From contig NZ_JAAKZI010000001.1 in assembly GCF_011045165.1 (NCBI RefSeq), forward strand, positions 248,001 to 312,000: a stretch of DNA of 64,000 bases. Reading direction: 5' to 3'. Source of the stretch: Arthrobacter silviterrae (GTDB taxonomy: Bacteria; Actinomycetota; Actinomycetes; Actinomycetales; Micrococcaceae). This document shows, in pieces, positions 31,786 through 56,626 of the stretch. The stretch's first letter is position 1. The number at the start of each line of letters is the position of its first letter. The notes beneath the pieces were generated by a model. That model had not been told where the DNA came from. It made no database searches and was given only the letters and a program-made list of their open reading frames with translations. The position numbers and the translations under genes were made by a program.

Positions 31786-32700
31786 GCTACTCTTCTGGTG
31801 CGTGATGTGCTACCTCGCCGCTCCCCCGCCGGACTGTGGTGGGGCCTGCTGGGCGTGGCCGCCTTTTCTTTCACCGTCCCCCTGACCCGAGTGGCCGACG
31901 GCGGCCTGTCGCCCCTGTTCGTCGGCTCCGGCCGGGCCGTGGTTGCCGGCGCACTGGCGGTGCTGGCCCTGGCGTTGACGCGCCAGCAGCTTCCGCAGGG
32001 GAAGCAGTGGCTGCGCCTCGCGGTCATCGCCGGCGGCATCGTGGTGGGCTTCCCGCTCCTGACGTCCTTCGCCCTCGCCACCGCACCCGCCAGCCACGGC
32101 GCCGTGGTGGTGGCACTCCTGCCGGCCGCAACGGCCACCGCCGCGGTGCTGCGCGGGCGTGAGCGCCCCTCGGCTGCGTTTTGGGCCGCCACCGCTGTCG
32201 GCGCCCTGGCCGCCATCGGCTTCGCCGTCGTCCAGTCGGGCGGCCTCGGCACCATCGGCGTGACCGACATACTGCTGTTCGGCGCAGTGCTGGCCGCGGC
32301 CATCGGGTACGCCGAAGGCGGCCTCTTGGCCCGCGAACTGGGTGCCTGGCAAACCGTTTCGTGGGCCCTTGTTGTCGCCTTGCCGCTCATGGCGGTGCTG
32401 GCCGGTGCCACCATGGCCAGCCAGCCGCCGTCGGCCTCGCCAATGCAGTGGGCAGCCTTTGCCTACCTGGGCGTGGTGAGCATGTTCCTGGGCTATTTTG
32501 CCTGGTACCGCGGGCTGGCGCTGGGCCCTATGGCGCCGGTCAGCCAAACGCAGCTGGTGCAGCCCGTCCTCAGCCTGGCCTGGGCGTGGCTGCTGCTGGG
32601 CGAAAGCCTCAGCTGGACTACAGTTTTGGGCGGAGCCGCCGTGGTGCTGTGCGCGGGCACGGCTGTCCGGGTGCGCCTCGCTCCCCCTGCCCGGCCCTGA
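31768..32700 (+). CDS. EamA/DMT-superfamily transporter under MocR control
   Basis: A 310-aa protein with ten membrane helices in two EamA repeats (GLLGVAAFSFTVPLTRVADG near the start, and LLFGAVLAAAIGYAEGGLLA for the second). The second repeat ends in a WAWLLLGESLSW motif common in this family. The ATG at 31768 overlaps the start codon of the divergent MocR gene. By analogy with other MocR/DMT pairs it may export amino acids or vitamin-B6-related compounds; this is inference. It is followed 25 bp later by the PaiB-like gene. Confidence 0.87.
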   Translation: MRTNDSATLLVRDVLPRRSPAGLWWGLLGVAAFSFTVPLTRVADGGLSPLFVGSGRAVVAGALAVLALALTRQQLPQGKQWLRLAVIAGGIVVGFPLLTSFALATAPASHGAVVVALLPAATATAAVLRGRERPSAAFWAATAVGALAAIGFAVVQSGGLGTIGVTDILLFGAVLAAAIGYAEGGLLARELGAWQTVSWALVVALPLMAVLAGATMASQPPSASPMQWAAFAYLGVVSMFLGYFAWYRGLALGPMAPVSQTQLVQPVLSLAWAWLLLGESLSWTTVLGGAAVVLCAGTAVRVRLAPPARP

Positions 32701-32725
32701 ATCCACCACAAGGAAAGGAACTTCC

Positions 32726-33343
32726 ATGTACATTCCCCAACACTTTGCCGCCACGCCCGCTGCCACGGCGAGGCTGCTCAGCGCGCCGTCCGCAGCGAAC
32801 CTGGTCACGATGACTTCCCGGGGGCTGCTTGCCACCTTGCTGCCGTTCCACTTCGACCCCTCCGTGGGGGAACACGGCGCGCTGCAGGCACACATGGCCC
32901 GCAACAACCCGCAATGGTCCGAGCCCGCGCTGGGCGAAGCACTGGCCATTGTGCAGGGCCCGGACGCGTACATTTCGCCGCAGTGGTACGCCGCCAAGGC
33001 CGAGCACGGGCGCGTGGTCCCCACCTGGAACTACACGACGGCGCACGTTTACGGCCGGCTTCTCATCCACGACGACGCCGCCTGGCTCGGCGCCCACGTC
33101 CGCGCCCTGACCGACGCCAACGAGGCCGGATTTGCAGAGCCCTGGGCCGTGGAGGACGCTCCCGAAAAGTTCGTGGCCGGACAGCTGCGGGCCATCGTGG
33201 GGCTGGAGCTGGTCATCACGCGGATTGAGGCGAAGGCCAAGTTGAGCCAAAACCGGCCCGCAACTGACATTCCGGGCATCGTGGCCGGGCTGGAGGGGCG
33301 CGGCTGCCCGGAAATGGCCGCCGCAGTGCGCGACGCCCCGTAA
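32726..33343 (+). CDS. paiB: PaiB-like FMN-binding protein
   Basis: A 205-aa protein of the PaiB/FMN-binding negative-transcriptional-regulator family, with a split-barrel fold. Family marks are MYIPQHFAA at the start, PFHFDPSVGEHGALQAHMAR (about residue 40), GPDAYISPQWYAAK, VPTWNYTTAHVYGRL (about 100) and LSQNRPATDIPGIV near the end. AAGGAAAGGAA lies upstream of the ATG at 32726. Bacillus PaiB affects sporulation and protease genes, but the biochemical role is unclear. It is probably co-transcribed with the DMT exporter. Confidence 0.92.
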   Translation: MYIPQHFAATPAATARLLSAPSAANLVTMTSRGLLATLLPFHFDPSVGEHGALQAHMARNNPQWSEPALGEALAIVQGPDAYISPQWYAAKAEHGRVVPTWNYTTAHVYGRLLIHDDAAWLGAHVRALTDANEAGFAEPWAVEDAPEKFVAGQLRAIVGLELVITRIEAKAKLSQNRPATDIPGIVAGLEGRGCPEMAAAVRDAP

Positions 33344-33428: not shown

Positions 33429-36400
33429 TTAGCGCTCGTGGTCCATGGTGGTGGCCACCTGAAGCTTGAACACCTTGCCGCGGCCCACAATGTAGCCGCG
33501 CCCGGGGATGAACTTGTTGTTGTACATTCGCCCCAGGGGCGTGCTCATGAGGGTGTCTCCCTCCAGATCGCCGGGATTCATCAGCAGCCCGCGCCGCCCG
33601 GACTTGAACAGCCCGGAGATGTTCCAGGCGCTGGACCAGGTGGACGATTCCGCCTCCCCCACCACAAAGTGGTTCGCCTTCACTGACGCCTTGATCAGGT
33701 TCACCAGGTCCATCTCCACCTCGGAATCGGCAAATTCGGTGACGCCCTCAATGAACAGCGCCACCTCCTGCGCCTCCGATTCCACCAGGTCAATCAGGCG
33801 CTGCAATTCCGGCTCCACGCCATGGTTGGTGGTGAACGCCTCGTCCCACACAGGCATGGTGGCCACGGCGGACTTCCTGGACCCGAGGTACACGCGACGG
33901 GTGCCCGGCGTCGAACGCTTAAGCGCTTCGGCGAGCGTGACGAGGGCCGTGGTGCGCCCGGAACCTGGCGGCCCCGTCAGCATGAGCGCGCCGCTGGCGG
34001 CCAGCCCGGCCGGTTCCAGGTTGTAGTCGTCCACGCCGATGACGGCCTCGCCGGGGCGCCCCGCCGGCAGGATGTTCAGGTCCAGCATTTCCGGCAGGGA
34101 TTCCACCCGCGGAGCCTGGCCCACCCCCTGGCGCCGGAGCGTGGCGGCCAGCTTCTCCACCTGGCGTGCCTGCAGGGCCAGGTTGGCGTTGCCCCCGAAG
34201 ACGGCCATCTGGACCTCACGGTTGTCGATGAGGCCGCGGCCGGGCGGGGAGGCGGCACTGAGCACGTCGCGCGGCAGGCCCAGGTTGGAGTAGTCGTCCA
34301 CCGTGGCCATGCGGAAAACCAGCAGGCGCTGCACGGAGGCCGCCAACGACGCCGGCAGCGACTTGGTGCTGTCGCCGGCAATGACAATGTGCACGCCCAT
34401 GGGACGGCCGTCCGTGGCGATCTGCTGCAGCGTTTCAAACTGGGTCATGCCCACGCGGAACTCGTACTGTTCGCGGAACGTGGCCAGCCCGTCCACCATG
34501 ATGATGATCCGGGGCTCGTCCGGCTTGCCCGCCAGGCGCCGGTACTCGGAGATGGTGCCGGCCTTTACTGCAGCGAACGATTCCGAGCGCTCCTCGATGA
34601 TGCCGCGCACGTAGCGCAGCAGCCGCCCCACGCGTTCGCCGTCCTCGGAGCTGATGATGCCGCCCACGTGCGGGAGGACCTCCAGCATGGCCAGCCCGTT
34701 GGAGGCCGCGTCAATGCCGTACACCTGCACGGGGCCGCCGCGCGGGGTGATGGCTGCGGCAATGGCAATGGTTCGCAGCGCCGCCGACTTGCCCGAGCCG
34801 CTGGCCCCCAGGATGGCCATGTTGCCGTCCTTGTCCGGTTCAAAAAACACCGTGGGCTGGGCCTGGTGTTCGGGATCGTCCATGACGCCCAGCAGCAGCT
34901 TCTCATCCGTACGGGGGTTGGGCAGCCGGGAGAAGTCATAGGTGTCAGGCAGCTCGCCCAGCCATGGCTTGCGGGGCGGCTTCACGCCAAGTTCGACGGC
35001 GGCCAGCGACACATTGGCCACCACCCTGGCAATGTCGTTGGGGCCGGCCACGTCCTCCACCGGCGCCGGAGCAAGTTCCTGCTCCCAAGCCGCACCGGAA
35101 CCGAAGTCCATCTCCACAATGTCAATGCGCGGGCGCTGCGGCGTGCGGCTGGTCCAGCCGCCCGCGTAGCCGGTCTGGAAGCCCTGGATGCGCCCCGGGC
35201 CGGTCTTGGCGGCGCCGCGGCCGGGAATGGTGGGGCTGAAGTATGCCGCCGTCGGCTCCCCCAGGATGTCCTGGGAATCGTCCACGTCAGCCATGCGCAG
35301 GGCGATGCGCATGTTGGTGTTGGCGCGCAGGTTGTCCTTGATGACGCCGGAGGGGCGCTGCGTGGCCAGGATCAGGTGCAGGCCCAGGGACCGCCCGCGG
35401 GCGGCAACATCCACCACGCCGTCCACGAATTCCGGCACTTCCTTGGCCAGGGCGGCAAATTCGTCCACCACAATGACCAGCGACGGCGGCGCCTCGGGGT
35501 CGGCTTCGCGCTCCATGGCCAGCAGGTCCTTGGCCTTCTTGCGGTTGAGCAGGTGCTCTCGGTAGTGCAGCTCGGCCCGCAGGGAGGTCAGCGCGCGGCG
35601 GACCAGGTGCGGGGACAGGTCGGTCACCAGGCCCACCGTGTGCGGCAGCTTGACACAATCGGCAAAGGCCGCGCCACCCTTGTAGTCCACGAACAGGAAG
35701 GAGAGCCGGTCCGGGCTGTACGCGGCGGCCATGCCCAGCACCCACGACTGCAGGAACTCGGACTTGCCGGCACCGGTGGTGCCGCCCACCAGCGCGTGCG
35801 GGCCCTCCGTCTTGAGGTCCAGGTACATGGGCTCCACGCCCTTGGAACCGACCAGGGCACGCAGGGAGCCCTGGTATTTGCGGTTCTTCACGGCACGGGA
35901 GGCCACGGAATTGTTTTCCAGCCAGCGGTCGGCAATGGAGGAGGTGCCCTCCACGAGCTCGTGCCCGGCCAGCGCCACATAGGACACGCTGCGCGGCAGG
36001 TCGGAGTCGTCGTCCACGGGCTTGCCCACGTCCACCACGGGCGCCATCATCCGGGCCAGCGAGGATGCCAGCTCCGCGGAGACACTCTCACAGCTCACGG
36101 GGTACGTGAGCCCGCCCAGGCGCACCTGGCCGGTGGTGGCTGCCTCGGACACGTGGACAAAGTCGCGGCACGCTGCCGGCAGGGCCTCGATGGAACCGGC
36201 CACCCACAGCACATGCACGCCGACGTCGGCCCCGTGCTCCACCAGGCGGGTCAGCCGGGCGCGGTCCACTTTGACGTCGTCCTCGACAACAACCAGCATG
36301 GCCGGGACCAGGGGTGCCGGGATTTCCAGCTTGTGCGGGTCAAGCGCGCCGCGGCGGGCCGAGGAATTGGCCTCGAGGCTGGCGCCGCGGGTCACAATCA

Positions 36401-37865
36401 GGTCCTCGAGCGCCGCCAGCAGCACGCTGGCGGCGCCCGTGCCCGCGGCGAGGTGGTCACCGGGCAGCGGCGAATGGACGGAGCCGGCGTGGGGCAGCCA
36501 CTGAAGCCAATCCCACCGCTGCTTCGATTCCATGGACGTCATGGCGGCCACGGCAAGCTCGGCCGGGGAGTGCAGCCCCACGGCCTGGAGCACCAGGCCG
36601 CGGGCCACGTCGTCGACCACGCCGCGCGGCCCGGCCACGCCCAGGGCGCCGCTGAGCCGGAGCTGGGCCACCACGGGCACGGCGTCCACGTCGCTGAATT
36701 CGGTTTTCAACTCCTGCACCTCGGCCATGTATTCCGGCAGCGTGTTGTTGTCCTGCGGCGCCTTGACGGGAGTGCGGGACGGCTGGCGGCCAATGCCCAG
36801 GCGTAGGCTGAGGAACGCCTGGTGCTCGGGGCGGTGGGTCCACATGAGCGGGCCCAGCTTGTAAATGGCGTCCGCCGTTTCGGCGGCGGAGGGGCATTCG
36901 GCCAGGCGCACGGCCCGCTCCACCTGCTGGCGGGCAGTCATTTGGCGGCGGAACTCCGCGGCGGCCGCCCGAAAATGCGCGATGTTTTCCAGCGTGTCCT
37001 TCTTCAGCTGGTGGCGCTGGTCCACGTAACTGCCAATCATCATGATCGGCATCATGGCCATGAAGATGATGCTGTACAGGCTCTTGGTGACGGCAAACAT
37101 GACGGCGCCCATCAGCACCGGCGCCATCATCATCAGGAGCGGGAACCGTTCACGCTTGGGCCGTTGCGGGCCGGCGGGCACCGTCTGTTCCTCGATCTCG
37201 AACTTCGGCACCACGCGCGGGGAGCGGTTGAACTCGACCAGGGGGCTGGTGGGGCCGGCGTGGGCGCCGCGGCCCAGCCCCACCACCGAGATGGCCGTCT
37301 CCCCCAACGTCACCTCGTCCGAGGATCCCAGCACGGCGCGGGAAATGTGGATGCCGTCCATCATGATGCCGTTGGCGGAGCCCGTGTCCGCAATCTCCAC
37401 CGTCTCCCCCACCGTGATGCGGGCGTGGCGCTTGGACATCATGGGGTCGCTGAGGCGCACGTCCACGTCAAAGTCCCGGCCAATGTAGCTGGTGCCCAGC
37501 GGCAGCGCGAACTCGCGGCCCATGTCGGGGCCGGCCATTACACGCAGGGTTGCGGCGGCCGGCCCCCTGTCCTGGTTCGGCACGTGGAAGGATTCGCTGA
37601 CCTGGGTCAGGGAGACTGTGGCGCCGGGGCGCAGCCCGGATTCAAGCAGGTTGCCGTCCGGGGGCAGGGTGCGCCCGCGCACGCCGCCCACCATGGACTC
37701 CTCCACCTTCAGCGAGAGCTGGGGCGGTGCAGCGGCGCCCTTGCGGGAGGGATCGGAAAGGTAGAGCTCGGTGGCGATGTCCCCCACCGTGGCCAGCCCG
37801 TCCACCGTGACCGCCAGGTTCTTGTCCTCATGCGGGGTGCGCTGGAGGGTGAGCCGAATCCTCAT
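33429..37865 (-). CDS. eccC: EccC/EssC-type FtsK/SpoIIIE ATPase with FHA domain (type VII secretion motor)
   Basis: A 1478-aa membrane ATPase. Residues 1-90 look like a ubiquitin-like or FHA-like fold ending SGLRPGATVSLTQV. An FHA domain follows at about 110-205 (YIGRDFDVDVRLSDPMMSKR, then GSANGIMMDG). Two membrane helices lie near 243-283. Three FtsK-type ATPase modules follow. Module 1 is intact (GGTTGAGKSE about 695; LVIVVDEFAAL about 795). Module 2 has GASGSGKSA (about 1023) but a weak Walker B, and module 3 has GPPGSGRTT (about 1298), with Arg for the Walker A Lys. The layout is that of EssC/EccC, which drives WXG100-substrate export. It is last in the operon, overlapping the FHA-HTH gene by 4 bases. 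Confidence 0.9.
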   Translation of the reverse strand: MRIRLTLQRTPHEDKNLAVTVDGLATVGDIATELYLSDPSRKGAAAPPQLSLKVEESMVGGVRGRTLPPDGNLLESGLRPGATVSLTQVSESFHVPNQDRGPAAATLRVMAGPDMGREFALPLGTSYIGRDFDVDVRLSDPMMSKRHARITVGETVEIADTGSANGIMMDGIHISRAVLGSSDEVTLGETAISVVGLGRGAHAGPTSPLVEFNRSPRVVPKFEIEEQTVPAGPQRPKRERFPLLMMMAPVLMGAVMFAVTKSLYSIIFMAMMPIMMIGSYVDQRHQLKKDTLENIAHFRAAAAEFRRQMTARQQVERAVRLAECPSAAETADAIYKLGPLMWTHRPEHQAFLSLRLGIGRQPSRTPVKAPQDNNTLPEYMAEVQELKTEFSDVDAVPVVAQLRLSGALGVAGPRGVVDDVARGLVLQAVGLHSPAELAVAAMTSMESKQRWDWLQWLPHAGSVHSPLPGDHLAAGTGAASVLLAALEDLIVTRGASLEANSSARRGALDPHKLEIPAPLVPAMLVVVEDDVKVDRARLTRLVEHGADVGVHVLWVAGSIEALPAACRDFVHVSEAATTGQVRLGGLTYPVSCESVSAELASSLARMMAPVVDVGKPVDDDSDLPRSVSYVALAGHELVEGTSSIADRWLENNSVASRAVKNRKYQGSLRALVGSKGVEPMYLDLKTEGPHALVGGTTGAGKSEFLQSWVLGMAAAYSPDRLSFLFVDYKGGAAFADCVKLPHTVGLVTDLSPHLVRRALTSLRAELHYREHLLNRKKAKDLLAMEREADPEAPPSLVIVVDEFAALAKEVPEFVDGVVDVAARGRSLGLHLILATQRPSGVIKDNLRANTNMRIALRMADVDDSQDILGEPTAAYFSPTIPGRGAAKTGPGRIQGFQTGYAGGWTSRTPQRPRIDIVEMDFGSGAAWEQELAPAPVEDVAGPNDIARVVANVSLAAVELGVKPPRKPWLGELPDTYDFSRLPNPRTDEKLLLGVMDDPEHQAQPTVFFEPDKDGNMAILGASGSGKSAALRTIAIAAAITPRGGPVQVYGIDAASNGLAMLEVLPHVGGIISSEDGERVGRLLRYVRGIIEERSESFAAVKAGTISEYRRLAGKPDEPRIIIMVDGLATFREQYEFRVGMTQFETLQQIATDGRPMGVHIVIAGDSTKSLPASLAASVQRLLVFRMATVDDYSNLGLPRDVLSAASPPGRGLIDNREVQMAVFGGNANLALQARQVEKLAATLRRQGVGQAPRVESLPEMLDLNILPAGRPGEAVIGVDDYNLEPAGLAASGALMLTGPPGSGRTTALVTLAEALKRSTPGTRRVYLGSRKSAVATMPVWDEAFTTNHGVEPELQRLIDLVESEAQEVALFIEGVTEFADSEVEMDLVNLIKASVKANHFVVGEAESSTWSSAWNISGLFKSGRRGLLMNPGDLEGDTLMSTPLGRMYNNKFIPGRGYIVGRGKVFKLQVATTMDHER

Positions 37866-38596
37866 TCATCGTCCGTTCCGCGCTGGGAGTCCAGCAGCGC
37901 CAGGTCGTCCGGGGTGACCAGATGGGATGTCACGGCGTGCTCCACCAGGCGGGCGCGCCGGTTGGTCGCCAGCTTGCCGCCGCCGCCGCGCAATCCCACC
38001 ACCCCCACGCGGTCCAGCTTGTCGCAGACATTGTCCAGCTTGCGGTTGAAGCGGGTCAGGGCCCAGCCCAGCCGCTTGGCGGCCTGGGCGGAGGACGGTA
38101 TGGCGCTGAATCCCGTCCCTTCGCGGCGCAGCATGGGCTCGGCCAGTGCCACGATCAGCGCCTTTTGCGAATCGGTGAAGACCACGGGGCCAATGGTGGT
38201 GGACCCGGCGGAGTCCTCCCCCCGGCTCTGCGCCATGAACGACGGCGTCTTCAGGTGCACGGAGAACTCATAGGTGGTGGGCCCTGCCGTGAAAATGACG
38301 TTCGTGTGCCCAAAGACCAGTGGAATGCGCGCGCCCGGGGCCATCCACGCCTGCATGCCCCCTGCGGCATCCGCAATGGTCGCCGACAGCATGGTGCCCG
38401 CATTCGTCAGCCACCAGATCCCGTCATAGCGGCTGATTTCCAGGAACTTGCGGTGCAGGTAGGGATTGTCGTCAATCTCCAGGTCCCCCTCGCGCCCAAT
38501 GCTGAACACCCCGTCCGGGGACGGCTCGTACCATTCACCACAAAAATCCACGGCCAGTTCCGCCACTGCATCCCCCTGCTTTTCCTTGTCCTGCAT
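37862..38596 (-). CDS. FHA-domain protein with C-terminal winged-helix-like region
   Basis: A 244-aa soluble protein. The N-terminal half is an FHA fold (GVFSIGREGDLEIDDNPYLH, then KFLEISRYDGIWWLTNAG), lacking some classic phospho-Thr contacts but with GR and the LHR segment. The C-terminal half (SQKALIVALAEPMLRREGTG, then SSAQAAKRLGWALTRFNRKL) looks like a winged helix of the kind found in signalling FHA proteins. The ATG at 38596 gives a 17-nt gap after the kinase gene. It is positioned between the kinase and the secretion ATPase, so it may relay kinase output. Confidence 0.8.
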   Translation of the reverse strand: MQDKEKQGDAVAELAVDFCGEWYEPSPDGVFSIGREGDLEIDDNPYLHRKFLEISRYDGIWWLTNAGTMLSATIADAAGGMQAWMAPGARIPLVFGHTNVIFTAGPTTYEFSVHLKTPSFMAQSRGEDSAGSTTIGPVVFTDSQKALIVALAEPMLRREGTGFSAIPSSAQAAKRLGWALTRFNRKLDNVCDKLDRVGVVGLRGGGGKLATNRRARLVEHAVTSHLVTPDDLALLDSQRGTDDE

Positions 38597-38613
38597 GTTG
38601 TCCGCCCGCCCCG

Positions 38614-40308
38614 CTAGGGGAAGCACTTTCGTGTTTCCGGGGACGTGCTGCCACTCTTGCGCACCAGCTTCACCGAAATGCACGACTGCCCGCCGGCGTT
38701 GTCGGTGACAAATATCTTCGGCGTCGCAACCGGCTTGAACTCACCCGAGGAGACTGCGCTGACGGCCGCCCACACGTAAAAGTCGCCCGGCTGCGGGTCC
38801 GGATTGCTCCAGCTCCAGTCGGCGCCGCCGTTGCCGGCCGTTGCCTTGAGGTTCGTCACGGCCGGCACGTCCGGCCCCACGATCACCGCGGGAGCCTGCG
38901 ACGCCGTCCTGGAGGCTTCCGGGTCCGCCGGCTTCGGCGCGCCCGCCGTATTGAAAACCACAATCCCAACCACGACGGCGGCCGCCAGCACCGCGCCCGC
39001 CCCCAGTCCCAGCCACCAGCGTTTTTTGCCGGGTGCCCGGGCAAGTTCCGGCGGCTGCCCGGACTGCTGCGCCGGCGCCTGCAACTCCTGCGGCGTCCCG
39101 CCGCCGCGCCTGACAGTGGATGCCAGCAGTCCTTCAGGCTGCCCTTGGGCTGCTGGCCGGACGGGATCCGCCCACTGCGGAGGGGACAGCTGCCCAGGCA
39201 GGGTGGAACCGTTTTGGGTCAGGCCGGATGTGCTGCCGCGGGTGCTGGTGGACACGCCCGGCACGGCGTTGATGTGCGGCGGCGCATCCTGTACCGGCTG
39301 GCCGATGTGGGGACCCGTCCGGAACGCGGAGGGAAAGGTCGGGGCGGAGGGCTGCGAGTCCGGGTCGATCGCGACGATGCTGCGCACGCGGGTCTCTTCA
39401 AAACCCCCGTCCGCCAGGGGTTCCTCCTGGACAATGTCTTCCTGGACCTCGAAGGGGGTGACGGACAGGTTCAGGTCCGCCTGCACGCGCATGAGGGCGC
39501 GGGCCAGTGCCTTCGCCGAGCGGTACCGCGACGCCGGGGACTTGGACATGGCCGTGGCCAGCACCAGGTCCAGGGCCTCGGGCACGTCGGCGCGGCCCAG
39601 CCGGGGCAGCGGCGCGGAGCCGATCCGGGCCATCAACTCGCGCTGGGAGTTGTCCCCGCCCGGCACCACGAACGGGGAATGGCCGGCCAGCAGCGTGTAG
39701 ATGGTGGCGCCGAGGGCCCAGATGTCCACCGTGACGCCGTCCGTGGCGCCGGCGGTGAAGGATTCCGGGGGCGACCACGGCACCGACATGCCGCCGTCGT
39801 CGTCGGGGGCGGAATCCATGGTGCCGGAAATGCCGAAGTCGGTCAGCGCCGGGCGGTTGTAGTCCGTGACCAGGATGTTGGCGGGCTTGATGTCGCGGTG
39901 GGCGATGCCTGCCCGGTGGGCGGTTTCCACGGCGGAGGCCACCTGTATGCCCACGCTGAGGGCCTCATCCACACTGAAGCGACCGCGCCGGGAGCGGACG
40001 TCCAGGCTGGGGCGGGAGCAGTATTCCATGGCCAGGTACGAGTGCCCGGCCGCCGTGATGTTTGCCTCGTAGATGGTGACAATGTAGGGGTGCGTGGAGA
40101 GCTGCGCCATGAGGTTGGCTTCAGACTCAAAGCGGCGGCGGGCGCCGTCGGTCTTCAAGTCCGAAAGCAGCACCTTGACCGCCACCCGGCGGCGCGGGCG
40201 GTCCTGCTCATACAGGTACACGTCCGAAAAGCCGCCGGACCCGAGGACGGAAAGAAAGCGGTAGCCGGGTATCTCCGGGGGCGGGGCCGGCGGGCGCTTG
40301 CTGCTCAC
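38614..40308 (-). CDS. PknB-like transmembrane Ser/Thr protein kinase
   Basis: A 564-aa kinase starting with GTG at 40308, overlapping the upstream FHA stop as GTGA. The kinase domain (about residues 15-280) is complete: GSGGFSDVYL loop, VAVKVL Lys, HRDIKPANIL catalytic loop (about 138) and TDFGISG (about 157). A Pro/Gln-rich linker follows, then one membrane helix (LGLGAGAVLAAAVVVGIVVF, about 430-450). An extracellular domain of about 110 residues looks FN3-like (VTNLKATAGNGGADWSWSNP) and carries two Cys (QSCISVK and RKCFP). It should phosphorylate FHA proteins of the same operon, and the PP2C gene would reverse this. Confidence 0.95.
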   Translation of the reverse strand: MSSKRPPAPPPEIPGYRFLSVLGSGGFSDVYLYEQDRPRRRVAVKVLLSDLKTDGARRRFESEANLMAQLSTHPYIVTIYEANITAAGHSYLAMEYCSRPSLDVRSRRGRFSVDEALSVGIQVASAVETAHRAGIAHRDIKPANILVTDYNRPALTDFGISGTMDSAPDDDGGMSVPWSPPESFTAGATDGVTVDIWALGATIYTLLAGHSPFVVPGGDNSQRELMARIGSAPLPRLGRADVPEALDLVLATAMSKSPASRYRSAKALARALMRVQADLNLSVTPFEVQEDIVQEEPLADGGFEETRVRSIVAIDPDSQPSAPTFPSAFRTGPHIGQPVQDAPPHINAVPGVSTSTRGSTSGLTQNGSTLPGQLSPPQWADPVRPAAQGQPEGLLASTVRRGGGTPQELQAPAQQSGQPPELARAPGKKRWWLGLGAGAVLAAAVVVGIVVFNTAGAPKPADPEASRTASQAPAVIVGPDVPAVTNLKATAGNGGADWSWSNPDPQPGDFYVWAAVSAVSSGEFKPVATPKIFVTDNAGGQSCISVKLVRKSGSTSPETRKCFP

Positions 40309-42620
40309 AAAAGGCCTTCAAAGAGAAGGGACACGCCGTCGCCCAGCTCCGCGATGTCGCCGTCGAGCAGGATGGCCTGTTCGCCCTGGCCCAGGCGTCG
40401 GGGCGCCTGGCCCTCCCGGACCAGGACGGTGCCGTTGGTGGCCTTCAGGTCAATGAGGAGCACGTCCCAGCCATCCAGGCGGACCTCCACGTGGGAACGG
40501 GAGATGTCCCCGCTGGCGCTTTGCACCTGCACCAGCCGCGGCACCCCGGCGCCCATGACGCGCGAAACCGACGGCTGGCGGCCGATGATCAGCGAATGGT
40601 CCAGGTCCAGGATCTCGCCCGTGGAGATGTGCATCCGGCCCAGGCGGGGGCGGCCCACCTCGCGCGGTTCGGAATTGATGGCGGCCCCGCAGTGCGAGCA
40701 CAGCGACCGCGTGGGTGGGTTGGCGTGGCCTGAAGGGCACAGCCGCGCCAGCACCATGGGGCCGGTGGGCGGGCGCGATTCAAGTTCCTCGGCCGCGGGC
40801 AGCTGGCTGCGGTTGACCATGATGGTTTGGCCGTCGTGGTCCGGGTCCTCGCCGTCGGCTCCGGGGGCCTGGCCTGCTGCGGGACCGGCGACGGCGGGAC
40901 CGGCGGCGGGACCGGCGACGGCGGCAGGACCGGCCTGGCTGCCGTCTTCTCCGCCGGCGTGGCTGCCGGCGGCTGGCCGGCCCGGGCCCCACGGCACCGA
41001 GTCAATGAGCACTCCCGTGGGCTCGGCCCAGGGGCCCGGTGCGGGGGTGCCCGCATTCGGCTCCTCTGAACTGGCCGGCATGCCTGCCAGCAAAGAGGCT
41101 TCCGGGCCGGCTGCAGCGGGGCCGGATGCAGGCATGCCGGGTGCGGGAATGGCCGGAGGCATTGCCGGAGGCGGCGGCAACATTGGAGCAGTGCCGGACT
41201 CCTTCGGGATCACCTGGCCGTTTTCGTCGAGGCGGATGGCCGCGTCCTCCACTGACCGCACTTCGGTTTCGCCGAAGAGGTGGTCGTAGTCGGTGGTGAA
41301 GCCGTCGTCCTGGCCGTCCGCTTCATCGCCGTAGTGCTGGTCGGCCCCGCTTTCTGCAGTGCCGCTGTCCGCAGTGCTGCTTTCCGCAGCACCGCTTTCC
41401 GGAGTGCCATGGTCCGGAGTGGAATTGACCAGTTCGCCGTTTTCCGGAGCCCCGGCAGACAGCCCTGAATGGGTGCCGTCCCCAATGTCCCCATCGCCTG
41501 TCGCGCGTGCTTCACCGGACGCCGGCGCCGCGTAGTCGGTGTCACCGTCCAGGCTCGGGAAAATGGTGTTGGCGAGATCCGAGTCAGCGATGCCGGCTTC
41601 AGCACTGCCGGGTTCATGGGTGCCGGATTCTACGCCGTTGCCGGGTTCGTCGACCCCCGGTTCATGGGAGTCGGGGCCGGAGGGCAGCTCGATGCCCGGG
41701 GGCAGGCTGAGTTCGCTGCTGTCGGGGCCGTCAAGCTCGGCGTTCCATTCCGCGTCTGAAGCCAGCGCGAAGCCGGCAAAGACGTCCTCCCCGTCGGCAT
41801 CTGTTTCGCCGGGAAAATGGTCACCCGCTGTGCCGTCAGGGTCCGGCTCCCCGTCTTCAAGGGCGCCAGCTTCCGCAGCGTCCGCTTCAACAGCGCCAGC
41901 TTCAGAAGCTCCAGCTTCAAAGACGACAGGCTGGAGCCCCGCAGGCGGGTGTACCGGCGACTCGGGCACCGCGCCGGGCACCGCGCCGGGCAGCGCAGGC
42001 GCGGACCATCCCGGGGCGGCTTCGGCCGGGGACACGACAGGGCTGAGAACAGTGTCGCCGTGTTCGGCGTCGAACCCGTCCCCTGCGGATGCGGCGCCGC
42101 CGGTTGGGGCGGCACTGGACGAGGCCGCACTGGAGACGCGCGCACCGCGGGCCAGCTGCTGCAGGCGGACCACACCTTCATGGAGGGGCAGCGCGGCAGC
42201 GTCCTGGCCGGATCCGCCGCCGTCGCCCGCTCCGTCGCCGTCGTCCAGGAACAGCTCCAGGGTCTCCGGCAGCGGAAGCGAGCGCTCGCTCCAGGTGGTC
42301 ACCTCGCGCCCGGACACCGTCGTCTCGGAGGCGCCGTTGCGCACCACCAGGGTCACGCCGCCGCGGAGTATGGCGTGCAGGCGGTCGGACTGGACCATGA
42401 TGGCAAAGGGCGGCATGCCCATCAGCGCGGTGCCAAAGTGGCCGGTCACGGCATTGAGCACGCCCTCGATGGTGGGCTCCTGCCGGCCCAGAAACTCCCA
42501 GAGCGCGTTGACGGTTTCCGGCGCGGTGCTGCCATCAAGGACGACGACGGCGTTGGAGCGCACAATTCCAAGCCAGGATCCGGGGCGGTACGTGGTGCTA
42601 TCCATGGTGATCGTCTCCAT
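40305..42620 (-). CDS. Large FHA-domain adaptor with zinc ribbon and low-complexity linker
   Basis: About 771 aa. An N-terminal globular domain of about 120 residues (RPGSWLGIVRSNAVVVLDGS, then VNALWEFLGRQEPTIEGVL) of unknown family is followed by a long acidic, Gly/Pro/Ser/Glu/Asp-rich linker (about 130-600). A Cys/His cluster of zinc-ribbon type comes next (CPSGHANPPTRSLCSHCG), then a C-terminal FHA domain (SLIIGRQPSVSRVMG, then SRSHVEVRLDGWDVLLIDL and TNGTVL). I chose the ATG at 42620 (GAGGGA 4 nt upstream); ATGs at 42632 and 42605 are alternatives. It overlaps the PP2C gene upstream and the kinase gene downstream. Likely a kinase-substrate scaffold. Confidence 0.85.
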   Translation of the reverse strand: METITMDSTTYRPGSWLGIVRSNAVVVLDGSTAPETVNALWEFLGRQEPTIEGVLNAVTGHFGTALMGMPPFAIMVQSDRLHAILRGGVTLVVRNGASETTVSGREVTTWSERSLPLPETLELFLDDGDGAGDGGGSGQDAAALPLHEGVVRLQQLARGARVSSAASSSAAPTGGAASAGDGFDAEHGDTVLSPVVSPAEAAPGWSAPALPGAVPGAVPESPVHPPAGLQPVVFEAGASEAGAVEADAAEAGALEDGEPDPDGTAGDHFPGETDADGEDVFAGFALASDAEWNAELDGPDSSELSLPPGIELPSGPDSHEPGVDEPGNGVESGTHEPGSAEAGIADSDLANTIFPSLDGDTDYAAPASGEARATGDGDIGDGTHSGLSAGAPENGELVNSTPDHGTPESGAAESSTADSGTAESGADQHYGDEADGQDDGFTTDYDHLFGETEVRSVEDAAIRLDENGQVIPKESGTAPMLPPPPAMPPAIPAPGMPASGPAAAGPEASLLAGMPASSEEPNAGTPAPGPWAEPTGVLIDSVPWGPGRPAAGSHAGGEDGSQAGPAAVAGPAAGPAVAGPAAGQAPGADGEDPDHDGQTIMVNRSQLPAAEELESRPPTGPMVLARLCPSGHANPPTRSLCSHCGAAINSEPREVGRPRLGRMHISTGEILDLDHSLIIGRQPSVSRVMGAGVPRLVQVQSASGDISRSHVEVRLDGWDVLLIDLKATNGTVLVREGQAPRRLGQGEQAILLDGDIAELGDGVSLLFEGLL
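41341..41430. repeat. 15-bp tandem repeats in the FHA-adaptor linker
   Basis: Six consecutive 15-bp units (41341-41430), in frame, resembling GCAGTGCCGCTGTCC with 2-6 changes per unit. They encode the ESGTAE/DSGAA-like acidic repeats of the linker, so linker length can change without a frameshift. A second degenerate pentapeptide block is at about 41860-41930. Confidence 0.8.
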
Positions 42621-43656
42621 AATTTCCCTCATCCGAGGATGGTTCCGGGCCGTCCGCAAGGCCTGCCGGATGATTGCTGGGGGTGAGCTGCGATGGTTCG
42701 TCCGTGGCTGCCGCGGCGTCCGGCCCCGCGTCCGGCGCCACGTTCGGCGCCACGTCCACGCGGGGCATGCGCGGAAGGGTGTCTTCCGCGGCGGAAACAG
42801 TGGAGGAATTCTCCAGCGTGGCCCCGGCGTCGCCCCCGTCAACGTTGCTGGCGTCAACCACCACCACTGTCACATTGTCCCGTCCGCCGGCGCGCAGGGC
42901 CGACTGGATGAGCGAATCCACGGCGTCCTGCGGGTGGTTGAGGGTGCTCAGGGCCCGGTGGATTTGTTCGTCCGTGACCTCATTGGTCAGCCCGTCCGAG
43001 CACACCAGGATCCTGTCGCCCTCCTCGACGGGAACCAGCCAAAAGTCGGCCTCCGTGTCGCTGCCGGTTCCCAGGGCCCGGGTCACCACATGGCGGCGAG
43101 GGTGGACCAGCGCCTGGCCCGGGGTGATGTAGCCGCCGTCCACCAGCTCCTGGACTTCCGAATGGTCCACGCTGACCTGGGCAAAGGTGCCCTGGCTCAG
43201 CCGGTAGGTGCGTGAATCGCCCACATTGAACACCAGCCAGTACGGTACTCCGCGTTCCTCCACCAGCGTTACACCCGTGACAGTGGTGCCGGCGCGGGCA
43301 TTGGAAATCTCGCGGATCCGGGCGTCTGCCTGGCGCAGGGCCTGTTGAAGGTCGACGGCGGTGGCCACGCGGGAGCCGTCCGAAAGGACCTGTTGCTGAC
43401 TTAGGACGCTAATGCATTCCCGGCTCGCCACCTCGCCGGCCTCATGCCCGCCCATGCCGTCCGCCACCGCAAAGATGGGGTCCGCGGCCAGGAAGGAATC
43501 CTCATTGAGCTCGCGCCTGAGCCCGCGGTCCGAGCCAAAGCCAAAGCTCAGGCGCACCCCCCGGACGCCGCTGTCACCGCTGTCACCGCTGTCGGCTGCG
43601 GCGCCGTCCTGCTCACGTGGCGCAACATGGGCTGCCTCGCCCGCACCAGGGCTCAT
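42598..43656 (-). CDS. PP2C-type Ser/Thr protein phosphatase
   Basis: A 352-aa phosphatase starting at the ATG at 43656, which overlaps the upstream stop as ATGA. The metal-binding and catalytic motifs are all present: NEDSFLAA, VADGMGGHEAGEVAS, NVGDSRTYRL, LVCSDGLTNEVTD and GGRDNVTVVVVDAS. The catalytic domain spans about residues 30-275 and the C-terminal 75 residues are acidic and disordered. There is no membrane helix, so it acts in the cytoplasm. It is the natural antagonist of the kinase in the same operon (PrpC/PstP role). Confidence 0.95.
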   Translation of the reverse strand: MSPGAGEAAHVAPREQDGAAADSGDSGDSGVRGVRLSFGFGSDRGLRRELNEDSFLAADPIFAVADGMGGHEAGEVASRECISVLSQQQVLSDGSRVATAVDLQQALRQADARIREISNARAGTTVTGVTLVEERGVPYWLVFNVGDSRTYRLSQGTFAQVSVDHSEVQELVDGGYITPGQALVHPRRHVVTRALGTGSDTEADFWLVPVEEGDRILVCSDGLTNEVTDEQIHRALSTLNHPQDAVDSLIQSALRAGGRDNVTVVVVDASNVDGGDAGATLENSSTVSAAEDTLPRMPRVDVAPNVAPDAGPDAAAATDEPSQLTPSNHPAGLADGPEPSSDEGNYGDDHHG

Positions 43657-45299
43657 GCCTGGCCCACCACGAAGGAACGGTCGCCAAAGTGCACGCGCGC
43701 GCCCACTTCCGCCAGGGCGGGCGTGCCGCCGGCCAGGCGGGACTTTTGCCCCGCGCGGTTGGTGATGGCGCTGCCGTTCGTGGAGTTTCTGTCCGTGACC
43801 CACAGGCCCTCCGCGCTGGCCCGCACATGCAGGTGCGTCTTGGACACCGAGCGGCTGGAATCGTGGACGGAAACGAGGCGTTCTATCATCTCCCCATCGT
43901 AACCGGCAGGATTGCGGCCGATGAGGGCCACGGTGGCGATGTCCTCGCTGCGGCCGTCGTCGAAGGTCAGGCGGATCGCCGTGCTGGGCGCCGGGGCGGG
44001 CGAGGAGGGGCGCACCCTGGTCTCGCCCAGATCGTCATCCCCGGGCGCCAGGCCGGGCGCGACCGGGTTGTACTGGGCCGGGTTGTGCTGGACAGGGTTG
44101 TACTGGGCGGGAGCTGCGAACGCCGGGCCGGCTTGGGCCGCTGGCGACGGGGCGAACGACGCCAGACTTGTGGCCGCCGCCGGAACTGTAGACGCCGCCG
44201 GCGGCGGGGCAAAGGAGTTCGCTGCTTCGGCAGGCCGGCTGGCACCCGGCACCGAGGTGATGGGCCCGGGCGCGGCTTCAACGGGTGCGAACCCGGACGG
44301 CTGGCCATAGGTGTTCGGCGTTTCGGGAGCGTGCGGACGTGCTGCCGGGATGGGTGACTGCACGGGGGAAATGCCCGTGACAGGCGCGGGTGCAAACGAC
44401 GTGCGCCCTGCAACGCCGCCGGTTTCCAGGGGATCGCGGCCGGCGGCAACATTAAACACGAGTGTGTGTGCCACCTTGTCGTGCCAGCCCTGCCGCTTGT
44501 CGTTGGAGTCCCAGGCGTTGGAGATGATGACCAGGATGGTGCCAAGGGTGGGCACGATGGAGCCAAGGGCAATGATGACGTAGCGCAGGAAAATGGCCAG
44601 CAATCCGGCCGGCCTGCCATCCATGCTGGTGGTGCGCAGACCCATCATGACGTTGCCGGGGGTCTTGCCGGACCGGGCCTCCCAGATCCACAACCACACG
44701 CCGTAGGCCAGGGACAGCAGCCATGCCGCCCCGCCCAGGACCAGCAGCCAGGTCAGGTTGATTTGCAGCTGCCCGGCCGTTTCCGTGGCTCCGGATATGG
44801 CCAGCGAGGTGCCCACGCCAAAGCCCACGGCGAGCAGGATCCCAGGCACCACGCCGTCGATGAGCTTCGCCACAAGGCGGCGGCCGGCGCCACCGGGCAC
44901 CAGTGCCGTGCCCATTTCCAGCCGGGCATCGCTGCCGTGCCGCTGCGGCGCCACGAGCGGCCCTCCTGCCAGGCCGCCCGGCTGATCGCCCTGTTGGCCA
45001 GCTTGCTGTCCGCCCACGGGGATGATGCCGGGTATCGACGGACCCGCCACCGGGGCCGTCACTCCGGCGCGGTGCCCGGGTGCGGCAATGATGGTGGCCG
45101 GCGGGGTGGGCGGGGCAGCAAACGGGCCCTGTCCGCCGTCGGGGTTGATGCAGGCGCCGTGGCCGCCCAGGGGCACCTCGGACGGGCCCGGGGAGGCCGC
45201 CCTGTTGGTCACCGCTGTCCCGCACAGCGTGCAGAACGCCGCACCCGGAGCCAGCTCAGCCCCGCAGTTGCGGCAGGTTTCCCCCGTTTTGCGCGCCAT
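43653..45299 (-). CDS. Zinc-ribbon/RDD-membrane/FHA protein
   Basis: A 548-aa protein. An N-terminal zinc ribbon (CRNCGAELAPGAAFCTLCG) precedes a Gly/Pro linker. An RDD domain follows (about residues 135-285) with membrane helices in GVVPGILLAVGFGVGTSLAI, TWLLVLGGAAWLLSLAYGV and AIFLRYVIIALGSIVPTLGT, and the RDD-type KTPGNVMMGLR loop. A second Pro/Ala linker leads to a C-terminal FHA domain (VALIGRNPAGYDGE, then SVSKTHLHV and NSTNGSAI) with all typical phosphothreonine-contacting residues. It could anchor phosphorylated partners to the membrane. Its start directly follows the transglutaminase stop (TAGATG). Confidence 0.88.
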   Translation of the reverse strand: MARKTGETCRNCGAELAPGAAFCTLCGTAVTNRAASPGPSEVPLGGHGACINPDGGQGPFAAPPTPPATIIAAPGHRAGVTAPVAGPSIPGIIPVGGQQAGQQGDQPGGLAGGPLVAPQRHGSDARLEMGTALVPGGAGRRLVAKLIDGVVPGILLAVGFGVGTSLAISGATETAGQLQINLTWLLVLGGAAWLLSLAYGVWLWIWEARSGKTPGNVMMGLRTTSMDGRPAGLLAIFLRYVIIALGSIVPTLGTILVIISNAWDSNDKRQGWHDKVAHTLVFNVAAGRDPLETGGVAGRTSFAPAPVTGISPVQSPIPAARPHAPETPNTYGQPSGFAPVEAAPGPITSVPGASRPAEAANSFAPPPAASTVPAAATSLASFAPSPAAQAGPAFAAPAQYNPVQHNPAQYNPVAPGLAPGDDDLGETRVRPSSPAPAPSTAIRLTFDDGRSEDIATVALIGRNPAGYDGEMIERLVSVHDSSRSVSKTHLHVRASAEGLWVTDRNSTNGSAITNRAGQKSRLAGGTPALAEVGARVHFGDRSFVVGQA

Positions 45300-47879: not shown

Positions 47880-49207
47880 GCCACTGCCTTTCGGAGGACT
47901 GCAGCCAAGTCCGTCAACTCACCCAGGGTGAGGACAGTGAGGTCGGCAATGTTGGCCCGGGCGGATTGCGCCCCGGAATAGCAGCGCACGGCAAAGCACC
48001 GCACGCCCGGCGGGACTGAGGCCGCCGCGCTGCGCAGCTGGGACGGGGTGACCCTGGAGCCCACCACCAGAAACACCACGGAGGCGTTGGGCACGGTGTC
48101 GGACAGCGTGCGGGCCAGGTCCACGGCCGTGCCGCGCCGGTTGTGGCCGGCCAGCCTGGTCATGTCATCCAGCATGTTCTTGCCGGTTTCGCAGCGGATG
48201 GGGCCGCGCTGCGTGACCACGCTGAGCTCCCGCGCCTCCTTGATGGCCTGCCGGCCCAGGGACGCTGCGGCGGAAATGGCCAATTCAAAGTCGTCGTCGC
48301 GTTCGTATTCGTCCGTGTTGACTGACAGGGCCACGGCCATGTGGGCCCGGCGCGTTTCCTCGAATTGGCGCACCATCAGCTTGCCGGTGCGGGCGGTGGT
48401 CTTCCAGTGGATGTGCCGGCGGTCGTCGCCCGGCACATAGTCGCGCAGGGCGTGGAAGGATACGTCGGCGCTGGAGAGCTCCGTGGTGGGAAGCCCCTCC
48501 AGGTCCTTCAGGAAGCCGGCCGCTGGACCGTCCAGTGCCGTGGTCCTCGGATGGACAAACAGGTCAGTCGGTTCGGTCCAGAGCACCTGTCGGCGCAGCA
48601 GCTGGAGGGGGTCGGAACGGACGGAACGCACCGGCCCCACCGTGATCACGGCACGGCGGGTGGTGGGGATGGTGAACAAGTCCTCATGGGTGTCCCCCGC
48701 CTTCATGCGGGGCAGGTGGAACAGGGCCGTGGCTCGTCCCACGGGCAGTTCCAATGCGGACGGCAGCACCGTGCGGGGAGCATTGTTCGTCACGGCAATG
48801 CTGCCCACGGCGTTGTCCCCGACCGCCACGCGCGTGCGGGCCAGGTCCAGCTTGACCGCGTACATGGACCGTCCCAGGATGAAGGCGATGGCAATCAATA
48901 TCAGCACGGTGGCCAGCAGGGCGGCCACTTTCGCTTCCTGCCAGCCAAAGGCGGCACCGAGGATCCAGAGAAGCACGACGGCGCCAATCACCACCGCGCC
49001 CAGCCCGCTGACGGTGCCAAGTACAGGGCGCACATAGCGGTCCAGCCATTGTCGGACCTTTCCCCACACGGGCGCCAGGTACAGCCCGGCCACTTTCACG
49101 GCCTCCGCCCACAGGGACGTGGGGTGGAGGCGCGTGGGGGCGCCGTCGCGGTGGAACGGCCGGGCCAGCAATGCCCCGGCCTTCCCTGCGGTGGATTTAA
49201 TGCTCAT
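47876..49207 (-). CDS. DUF58-family membrane-associated protein
   Basis: A 443-aa protein with two adjacent membrane helices (about residues 66-110) and a C-terminal DUF58 domain with a von Willebrand A-like fold. The signature is HALRDYVPGDDRRHIHWKTT, then ARTGKLMVRQFEET (about 255-285). DUF58 proteins are almost always encoded with MoxR ATPases and transglutaminases, as here, and are thought to be assembled or activated by the AAA+ partner. AAGGAACACTC precedes the ATG at 49207. It begins the strictly overlapping block of the operon. Confidence 0.93.
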   Translation of the reverse strand: MSIKSTAGKAGALLARPFHRDGAPTRLHPTSLWAEAVKVAGLYLAPVWGKVRQWLDRYVRPVLGTVSGLGAVVIGAVVLLWILGAAFGWQEAKVAALLATVLILIAIAFILGRSMYAVKLDLARTRVAVGDNAVGSIAVTNNAPRTVLPSALELPVGRATALFHLPRMKAGDTHEDLFTIPTTRRAVITVGPVRSVRSDPLQLLRRQVLWTEPTDLFVHPRTTALDGPAAGFLKDLEGLPTTELSSADVSFHALRDYVPGDDRRHIHWKTTARTGKLMVRQFEETRRAHMAVALSVNTDEYERDDDFELAISAAASLGRQAIKEARELSVVTQRGPIRCETGKNMLDDMTRLAGHNRRGTAVDLARTLSDTVPNASVVFLVVGSRVTPSQLRSAAASVPPGVRCFAVRCYSGAQSARANIADLTVLTLGELTDLAAVLRKAVA

Positions 49208-56489: not shown

Positions 56490-56565
56490 GTGATTCCCCC
56501 GGTTGTGATCAAGACCCCCACGTATTTTCGCAGAAAGTCCATCGTCTTGACAAACTTTTTCTCAC

Positions 56566-56626
56566 CCCGAACCGGCACTTAACGTGGATGTTGCTCTGAA
56601 ACATCCACGTTAAGTGCCGGTTCGGG
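56566..56626 (-). terminator. 27-bp perfect hairpin between the two giant genes
   Basis: Arms 56566-56592 and 56600-56626 are exact reverse complements over 27 bp with a 7-nt loop (GCTCTGA). The hairpin begins at the base directly beyond the stop codon of giant copy 2 (56627-56629). There is no T tract on the minus strand, so it fits an I-shaped actinobacterial terminator or a 3'-end stabiliser. Confidence 0.8.

What the first reader, a model, noticed from the sequence alone, without database searches (positions are those of the whole stretch)
33429..37865. EccC/EssC-type ATPase without visible ESX partners
The 1478-aa ATPase has FHA, two membrane helices and three FtsK modules, the plan of the type VII secretion motor. 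Yet no WXG100, EccB, EccD, EccE or MycP-like gene appears in the flanking 30 kb, while FHA and kinase genes do. It may serve a reduced secretion system or move other substrates such as the giant proteins.
Basis: partly seen in the sequence, partly recalled or inferred. Interest (0 to 1): 0.7.

Follow-up and report, generated by a model that had tools for sequence, protein, structure and literature searches.

The report
Kinase-linked type VII-like secretion motor
The gene encodes the motor of what looks like a stripped-down version of a known bacterial protein-export machine; its small partner proteins are in the genome after all, but moved away and mostly too altered for standard searches, and the motor is built into an operon type described in bifidobacteria.

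Summary
In detail: 33429-37865 (-) encodes a 1478-aa EccC/EssC-type ATPase (beta-grasp-like domain, FHA, two TM segments, three FtsK modules), and no WXG100 gene is detectable in the window. 'Without partners' does not hold for the system. In 36 of 72 orthologous loci with enough downstream sequence a diverged WXG100 gene follows the ATPase, often with larger WXG-headed, effector-like proteins after it. Two tested members score 23-24 bits in Pfam (cut-off 27.3); the group lacks the YxxxD/E export motif (0 of 28). The window's genome has six clear members at other loci, including two identical copies of the gene that sits beside the ATPase in close kin. The group tracks the ATPase (34 of 55 genomes with it, 17 of 143 without). 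No EccB, YukD/EccD or EssB was found in the genome. The ATPase closes an operon (Ig/FN3 giants, MoxR, DUF58, TgpA, RDD/FHA, PP2C, FHA, kinase) whose gene set matches the bifidobacterial PFNA cluster; the two PFNA papers searched do not mention such an ATPase. Best reading: motor of a reduced, kinase-gated WXG-FtsK type VII-like exporter, a new variant of a known kind. Secretion and gating are inferred, not shown.

The parts
33429..37865 (-). EccC/EssC-like ATPase: beta-grasp-like domain (about 1-90), FHA (about 103-198), 2 TM (about 241-281), three FtsK modules (Walker A 694-703, 1019-1028, 1296-1305)
37862..38683 (-). 273-aa protein (an ATG lies inside); no Pfam match; homolog directly precedes the ATPase in 79 of 80 orthologous loci; its N-terminal half reads like a degenerate FHA domain (sequence reading only)
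38614..40308 (-). Ser/Thr protein kinase
   Evidence: Pfam Pkinase 6e-40, PknB-like
40305..42857 (-). FHA-domain protein with zinc-ribbon-like cysteines and a long acidic linker (sequence reading); true start probably internal
   Evidence: Pfam FHA 5e-6
42598..43803 (-). PP2C-type Ser/Thr phosphatase
   Evidence: Pfam, Stp1-like
43653..45299 (-). Zinc ribbon + RDD membrane domain + weak FHA match (17.6 bits, cut-off 20.7)
45300..47879 (-). TgpA-like membrane transglutaminase
47876..49207 (-). DUF58 protein
49246..50217 (-). MoxR AAA+ ATPase
50349..56489 (-). 2046-aa Ig (Big_9)/FN3 surface protein
56627..62758 (-). 2043-aa paralog of the former, 64% identical
32498..33343 (+). FMN_bind_2 (PaiB-like) gene, convergent, at the place where kin carry the WXG100 gene; not part of the system

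Best explanation
The ATPase is the motor of a reduced type VII-like export system. It is anchored in the membrane by two TM helices; module 1 is a complete ATPase and the C-terminal modules receive substrates. Substrates are small WXG100 proteins of a group of their own and larger proteins with the same WXG domain at the N-terminus. In the window's genome these genes are scattered; the ATPase-adjacent copy has moved away. Kinase, PP2C phosphatase and FHA domains (one in the ATPase itself) would gate assembly or activity by phosphorylation. MoxR-DUF58-TgpA and the Ig/FN3 giants form the envelope/surface part of the same operon. Shown by sequence: gene content, order, orthology, co-occurrence, relocation. 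Inferred: secretion, phospho-gating, substrate range.
For: (1) Profile of 14 orthologs matches solved EccC/EssC chains along the length: YukB 9qks (205-976), 4nh0 (396-1476), EccC5, and the EccC3 stalk (234-464). (2) The 47 sampled orthologs are one side of a branch, SH-aLRT 93 (46 of them: 100), apart from labelled EccC and EssC and from other actinobacterial EccC-like ATPases. (3) WXG100 gene within 2 kb downstream in 36 of 72 loci, none upstream; also directly downstream in 7 of 7 further loci picked for being WXG-positive, one of them by the generic profile only. (4) Predicted fold is a helical hairpin, pLDDT 90.6; 13 of the first 14 PDB rows are Esx/WXG100 entries. (5) Own genome: members at C24 and C38 (identical coding sequence), C19, C11, C1, C47. 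(6) Presence tracks the ATPase: 34/55 with ortholog, 15/51 with only another EccC-like, 2/92 with neither, Fisher p=6e-12; inside the window's family 8/8 against 0/7, while a PF06013 match is in all 15. (7) In Antribacter (L134) the order is ATPase, WXG100, then homologs of the own genome's unlinked C19 effector (35%) and its partner gene (39%). (8) Kinase and 273-aa homolog directly upstream in 79/80 close loci; FHA positions R130, S144, N165 invariant in 37 of 37 rows.
Against: No secretion data. No EccB/EccD/EssB, so the channel is unknown. 36 of 72 loci lack an adjacent WXG100; all 36 are titled Arthrobacter, Pseudarthrobacter or Paenarthrobacter. 21 of 55 ortholog genomes lack a match to the WXG profile, though 7 of the 12 such loci viewed have small helical ORFs there (by eye; script stopped early). 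Outside close kin the operon link is weaker: of 27 more distant ortholog loci the kinase homolog is found in 6, TgpA in 12, either in 13 (single-sequence search, about 9.5 kb upstream seen). The own genome has a second, degenerate EssC-like ATPase (C15). Co-occurrence is confounded by kinship.
Confidence: 0.72

Rival explanations
1. Complete ESX-4-like type VII system whose other parts lie elsewhere in the genome; this ATPase is its EccC.
For: A mycosin-like S8 protease is present, unlinked (C96, 234.8 bits; EccB-linked mycosins of three control genomes score 235-261); genes of the system are clearly scattered in this genome.
Against: No EccB, YukD/EccD or EssB found. EccB occurs in only 2 of the 28 ortholog genomes searched. 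The C96 protease sits in an eno-divIC-ppx-ndh-like locus (sequence reading).
Confidence: 0.07
2. The ATPase does not export proteins; it is a kinase-controlled envelope ATPase of the PFNA-type operon that handles the giant Ig/FN3 proteins or cell-wall material, and the WXG100 proteins are cytoplasmic or regulatory.
For: Tight linkage to TgpA, DUF58, kinase, PP2C and FHA genes in close kin; WXG100 gene absent from the locus in the window and in 36 of 72 loci.
Against: Full-length EccC/EssC architecture; WXG100 adjacency and co-occurrence; effector-like multidomain WXG proteins; in distant orthologs kinase or TgpA is found in only 13 of 27 loci.
Confidence: 0.14
3. The second EssC-like ATPase (C15) drives the WXG proteins and the window ATPase has lost its partners.
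For: C15 exists in the same genome; the adjacent WXG100 gene is gone from the window locus.
Against: C15 has lost Walker A2/B2 residues and is very divergent (branch 2.4), with no WXG match on its contig; the window ATPase is an intact ortholog of WXG-linked ATPases.
Confidence: 0.07

Closest known systems
Type VIIb secretion ATPase EssC/YukB (Bacillota)
   Same: Best NCBIfam match (554.8 bits); FHA + 2 TM + three FtsK modules; WXG100 genes
   Different: Below the curated cut-off; no EssB or YukD gene found in the genome; a beta-grasp-like domain is fused in front of one FHA; WXG100 group without YxxxD/E
Type VIIa/ESX-4 EccC (actinobacteria)
   Same: Module plan and stalk region shared with EccC3/EccC5/4nh0
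   Different: No EccB/EccD found; separate branch from labelled EccC; FHA N-terminus
WXG-FtsK clusters proposed as the precursor of ESX (PMC4791881, passages seen)
   Same: ATPase + WXG100 without EccB/EccD
   Different: Actinobacterial, not Bacillota; in close kin wired to kinase/PP2C/FHA and MoxR-DUF58-TgpA-FN3
PFNA operon of bifidobacteria (PMC8430577, PMC6803598; passages seen)
   Same: pkb2, fn3, aaa-atp (MoxR), duf58, tgm, prpC, fha in one operon
   Different: Here with RDD/FHA, a 273-aa protein and the ATPase; both papers have 0 mentions of FtsK, EccC or type VII; gene order differs (kinase near the end, not first)

Membership tests
EccC/EssC ATPases | TM-anchored protein with three tandem FtsK-type modules, module 1 with full Walker A/B | tested here: met
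   (K701 and E802 in 47 of 47 orthologs)
EccC/EssC ATPases | Curated equivalog cut-off of TIGR03928, TIGR03924 or TIGR03925 | tested here: not met
   554.8/778.4, 351.5/509.15, 302.9/346.55 bits
Type VII secretion system (any) | WXG100 genes linked to the ATPase | tested here: met
   36 of 72 loci and 7 of 7 selected further loci; in the window itself not linked but present in the genome
Type VIIa (ESX) | EccB and EccD | tested here: not met
   0 in own genome, with positives in control genomes
Type VIIa (ESX) | Mycosin (MycP) | tested here: inconclusive
   three unlinked matches in own genome, best C96 at 234.8 bits; no match passes the cut-off 278.75 in any of the 5 genomes searched
Type VIIa (ESX) | EccE | not tested
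Type VIIb (Ess) | EssB and stand-alone YukD/EsaB | tested here: not met
   0 in own genome
Type VIIb (Ess) | EsaA and EssA | not tested
   -
WXG100 superfamily (linked gene) | About 100 aa, helical hairpin with central WxG | tested here: met
   W43 and G45 invariant in 28 of 28 rows; model
WXG100 superfamily (linked gene) | Pfam PF06013 cut-off 27.3 bits | tested here: not met
   linked small genes L117 and L148: 24.2 and 23.2 bits; own C38 gene: no match. Of 10 WXG-domain proteins scanned one passes: own C11, 29.5 bits (31.7)
Type VII substrates | C-terminal YxxxD/E | tested here: not met
   0 of 28 rows; 28 of 29 generic WXG100 rows have it
Secretion | ATPase-dependent export | not testable with these tools
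   -
PFNA cluster | kinase, FN3 protein, MoxR, DUF58, transglutaminase in one operon | tested here: met
   (co-directional neighbours; co-transcription not tested); order differs from PMC8430577

The most novel reading that the evidence does not exclude
The PFNA cluster, described as a bifidobacterial host-communication operon, is in much of its actinobacterial range a kinase-gated type VII-like secretion island in which MoxR, DUF58, TgpA, RDD and the Ig/FN3 giants take the place of EccB/D/E as envelope passage. It has its own WXG100 group with a QxxTS C-terminal signal in place of YxxxD/E and a module 3 in which the Walker lysine is usually arginine. Bifidobacterial PFNA would be a derivative that lost the motor (not tested here).
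Probability: 0.3. Interest if true: 0.82.

Novelty: new variant of a known kind. Interest (0 to 1): 0.62.

Why it matters
It points to an actinobacterial WXG-FtsK system without EccB/EccD/EssB in culturable soil bacteria, so it can be asked directly what the smallest working type VII exporter is and whether phosphorylation gates it. It would connect two literatures (type VII secretion and PFNA) and helps to explain why standard profiles can report 'no WXG100' at such loci.

Tried and rejected
Complete ESX elsewhere: searched EccB, YukD/EccD and EssB, none found in own genome; mycosin gave three unlinked matches below cut-off (C96 234.8 bits; C13 140.6 bits with a stop inside; C43 32.1 bits). 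The generic orphan WXG100 (C17) as partner: rejected, since 184 of 198 genomes have a PF06013 match whether or not they have the ATPase. A relic of the WXG100 gene in the window: none found. EspG-like chaperone for the genes after the C11 and C19 effectors: Pfam gives none. N-terminal beta-grasp domain: the fold search was filled by FHA hits and did not test it; Pfam shows no YukD match in the window protein; so it rests on the strand/helix order of the model (mean pLDDT 80.2, pTM 0.50) and on weak sub-cut-off YukD hits at or near the N-terminus of two other EccC-like ATPases. Module 3 K-to-R as an invariant signature: it looked invariant in 14 sequences but is 35 R and 12 K of 47 in the wider set. 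Giants as substrates: no support.

Limits: order-wide WXG counts rest on a first look capped at 26 scored candidates per genome, and on a profile built from loci of the same group. The tree is a quick one, with long branches flagged (the EccC and EssC references join by long branches). The 20 loci L164-L183 were picked because their genomes were WXG-profile-negative, L192-L198 because positive. In one search the generic WXG100 rows were cut to the Pfam match, so the QxxTS comparison is one-sided.

Full report
OBSERVATION. The window lies in contig C1 (248001-312000) of a 4.29-Mb, 106-contig genome rated 100% complete; its nearest named kin by this gene are Arthrobacter. ORF 33429-37865 (-) encodes 1478 aa with FHA, two adjacent hydrophobic segments and three FtsK-type modules. 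Best NCBIfam matches are EssC (554.8 bits), EccCa and EccCb, all below curated cut-offs. A profile of 14 orthologs matches solved YukB, EccC3, EccC5 and 4nh0 chains, the membrane-proximal stalk included. A model of residues 1-210 (mean pLDDT 80.2, pTM 0.50) gives strand/helix order bb-a-bb-a-b over 2-88, read here as a beta-grasp domain, followed by an FHA domain (FHA Z 17.6, rmsd 1.8, 98 aligned, against GarA). The beta-grasp reading is inference.

OPERON. Upstream on the same strand: two 64%-identical giant Ig/FN3 proteins, MoxR, DUF58, TgpA, RDD/FHA, PP2C, FHA, kinase and a 273-aa protein. In 80 orthologous named loci (the best 80 of 576) homologs of the kinase and the 273-aa protein directly precede the ATPase in 79, and all seven genes TgpA to ATPase are found in 75; the other five (L081, L089, L107, L135, L146) have under 6.2 kb of upstream sequence. 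This is the gene set of the bifidobacterial PFNA operon (pkb2, fn3, aaa-atp, duf58, tgm, prpC, fha; PMC8430577, passages), in another order. PMC8430577 and PMC6803598 contain no mention of FtsK, EccC or type VII. A Bifidobacteriaceae MAG (L146) has ATPase, kinase, FHA, PP2C and Ig homologs and four WXG ORFs together. Further out the link thins: in 27 more distant ortholog loci (L164-L183, L192-L198) the kinase homolog is found in 6, TgpA in 12, either in 13 (one-sequence queries and about 9.5 kb upstream, so a lower bound).

PARTNERS. A profile made from generic WXG100 proteins found weak hits just downstream of the ATPase in many of these loci. Aligned, they form a group of their own (A2, 28 rows: invariant G7, W43, G45, D47, F51, W56, Q84, S88), predicted as a helical hairpin like Esx proteins (for helical hairpins Z values of 9-11 are not decisive alone). 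Two linked members scanned score 24.2 and 23.2 bits against PF06013, cut-off 27.3, and the own C38 copy gives no match, which is why the partner is easily missed; one own member, C11, does pass (29.5 bits; 31.7). In 36 of 72 loci with at least 1.5 kb downstream such a gene lies within 2 kb of the ATPase; none lies upstream. The 36 loci without are all titled Arthrobacter, Pseudarthrobacter or Paenarthrobacter. In many loci a larger protein with the same N-terminal domain follows, with glycine-rich, hydrophobic or hydrolase-like C-terminal parts. None of the 28 rows has YxxxD/E near the C-terminus and 27 of 28 have Q-x-x-[TASV]-S; 28 of 29 generic WXG100 rows have YxxxD/E.

THE OWN GENOME. Seven matches at E<=1, six of them at 4e-17 or better: C24 and C38 (identical coding sequence within a 496-bp repeat of 95.8% identity), C19 and C11 (WXG domain at the head of proteins of about 330-360 aa), C1:99384 (about 148 kb from the window's edge), and C47 (a WXG-headed alpha/beta-hydrolase-like protein followed by a lipoprotein). 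The C24/C38 gene and its leader are 77% identical over 390 bp to the stretch that begins about 45 bp after the ATPase stop in Arthrobacter sp. GMC3 (L077). So the adjacent gene appears to have moved rather than never existed; in the window a PaiB-like gene now converges on the ATPase. In Antribacter (L134) the ATPase, a WXG100, and homologs of the own C19 effector and its partner gene are contiguous (35% and 39% identity), which ties the scattered own genes to this ATPase.

DISTRIBUTION. Among 198 genomes of the order, 55 have an ortholog (870 bits or more), 51 only another EccC-like protein (E<=1e-100), 92 neither. The WXG100 group (E<=1e-6) occurs in 34/55, 15/51 and 2/92 (Fisher for ortholog against the rest p=6e-12, not corrected for kinship). 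In the window's family it is 8 of 8 with and 0 of 7 without the ATPase, while a PF06013 match occurs in all 15. Of the 21 ortholog genomes without the group, 20 were fetched: the generic or A2 profile finds a WXG ORF just downstream in L171, L181 and L182, 3.5-4.5 kb downstream in L164, L168, L174 and L175, and on the upstream side in L176 and L177; L164, L165, L168-L172 show small helical ORFs of about 100 aa directly after the ATPase (judged by eye; the script stopped after 12 loci, the other 5 of which showed none). Orthologs also occur in other classes of the phylum (G328, G401, G291). A quick tree puts all 47 sampled orthologs on one side of a branch (SH-aLRT 93; 46 of them 100), apart from labelled EccC and EssC and from other actinobacterial EccC-like ATPases.

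MISSING PARTS. EccB: 0 in own genome; 8 of 48 genomes positive, among them 2 of the 28 ortholog genomes. YukD/EccD: 0 in own; 8 of 19 positive, among them all 6 classical genomes and 2 of the 13 ortholog genomes. EssB: 0 in own, B. subtilis control rings. Mycosin: three unlinked matches in own, best 234.8 bits, inconclusive. EccE, EsaA and EssA were not searched.

HOW IT MOST LIKELY WORKS. Shown by sequence: an intact module 1 (K701 and E802 in 47 of 47), module 2 with K in 46 of 47, module 3 with R in 35 and K in 12 of 47; an FHA domain with R130, S144 and N165 invariant in 37 of 37 rows (that these bind phosphothreonine is recalled knowledge of FHA domains) next to kinase and phosphatase genes. 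Inferred: WXG100 or a WXG100-effector pair docks on the C-terminal modules; phosphorylation of a partner read by the FHA domains licenses assembly; export goes through an unknown membrane passage.

COMPARISON. PMC4791881 (passages) proposes WXG-FtsK clusters of Bacillota as the ancestor of ESX-4. The present system looks like an actinobacterial WXG-FtsK lineage without EccB/EccD and is not a member of T7SSa or T7SSb by the defining parts tested, though it would work like them. Nine searches of open-access papers for the combination listed none that by title, abstract start or the passages read describes it (passages seen in PMC8430577, PMC6803598, PMC1779556, PMC3935865, PMC4791881 and PMC12067865). 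Most subscription papers and preprints were not covered. PMC12067865 notes that the mycobacterial moxR operon resembles PFNA.

VERDICT. Observation right, 'no partners' wrong in substance, 'reduced system' right. New variant of a known kind; function untested.

Noticed in passing
G000 C17 (L004:9939-10232, -): Generic 97-aa orphan WXG100 beside a sensor kinase and response regulator; a PF06013 match occurs in 184 of 198 genomes of the order.
   Followed up: partly
G000 C15 (L012:10489-15018, +): Second EssC-like ATPase (1509 aa) with Walker A2/B2 lost, beside UDP-galactopyranose mutase, galactofuranosyltransferase and PdtaS-like kinase genes.
   Followed up: partly
G000 C47 (L187:7069-8935, +): WXG-headed alpha/beta-hydrolase-like protein followed by a small lipoprotein-like gene, an arrangement like an effector with its immunity lipoprotein.
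   Followed up: no
G000 C96 (L227:9376-10875, +): Mycosin-like S8 protease in an enolase / DivIC-like / Ppx / NADH-dehydrogenase-like neighbourhood (neighbours read by eye).
   Followed up: partly
window 50349-62758: Tandem pair of giant Ig/FN3 proteins, 1327 of 2058 aligned positions identical: a duplication of the PFNA-type fn3 gene.
   Followed up: partly
L075: A record titled Sporosarcina beigongshangi (Bacillota) carries the operon from DUF58 to an 81% identical ATPase; mislabelling or contamination is likely.
   Followed up: no
L164, L165, L168-L172, downstream of the ATPase: Diverged clade with small helical ORFs lacking WxG and, in several loci, a 390-490-aa helical protein after the ATPase: possibly a further substrate family.
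   Followed up: partly
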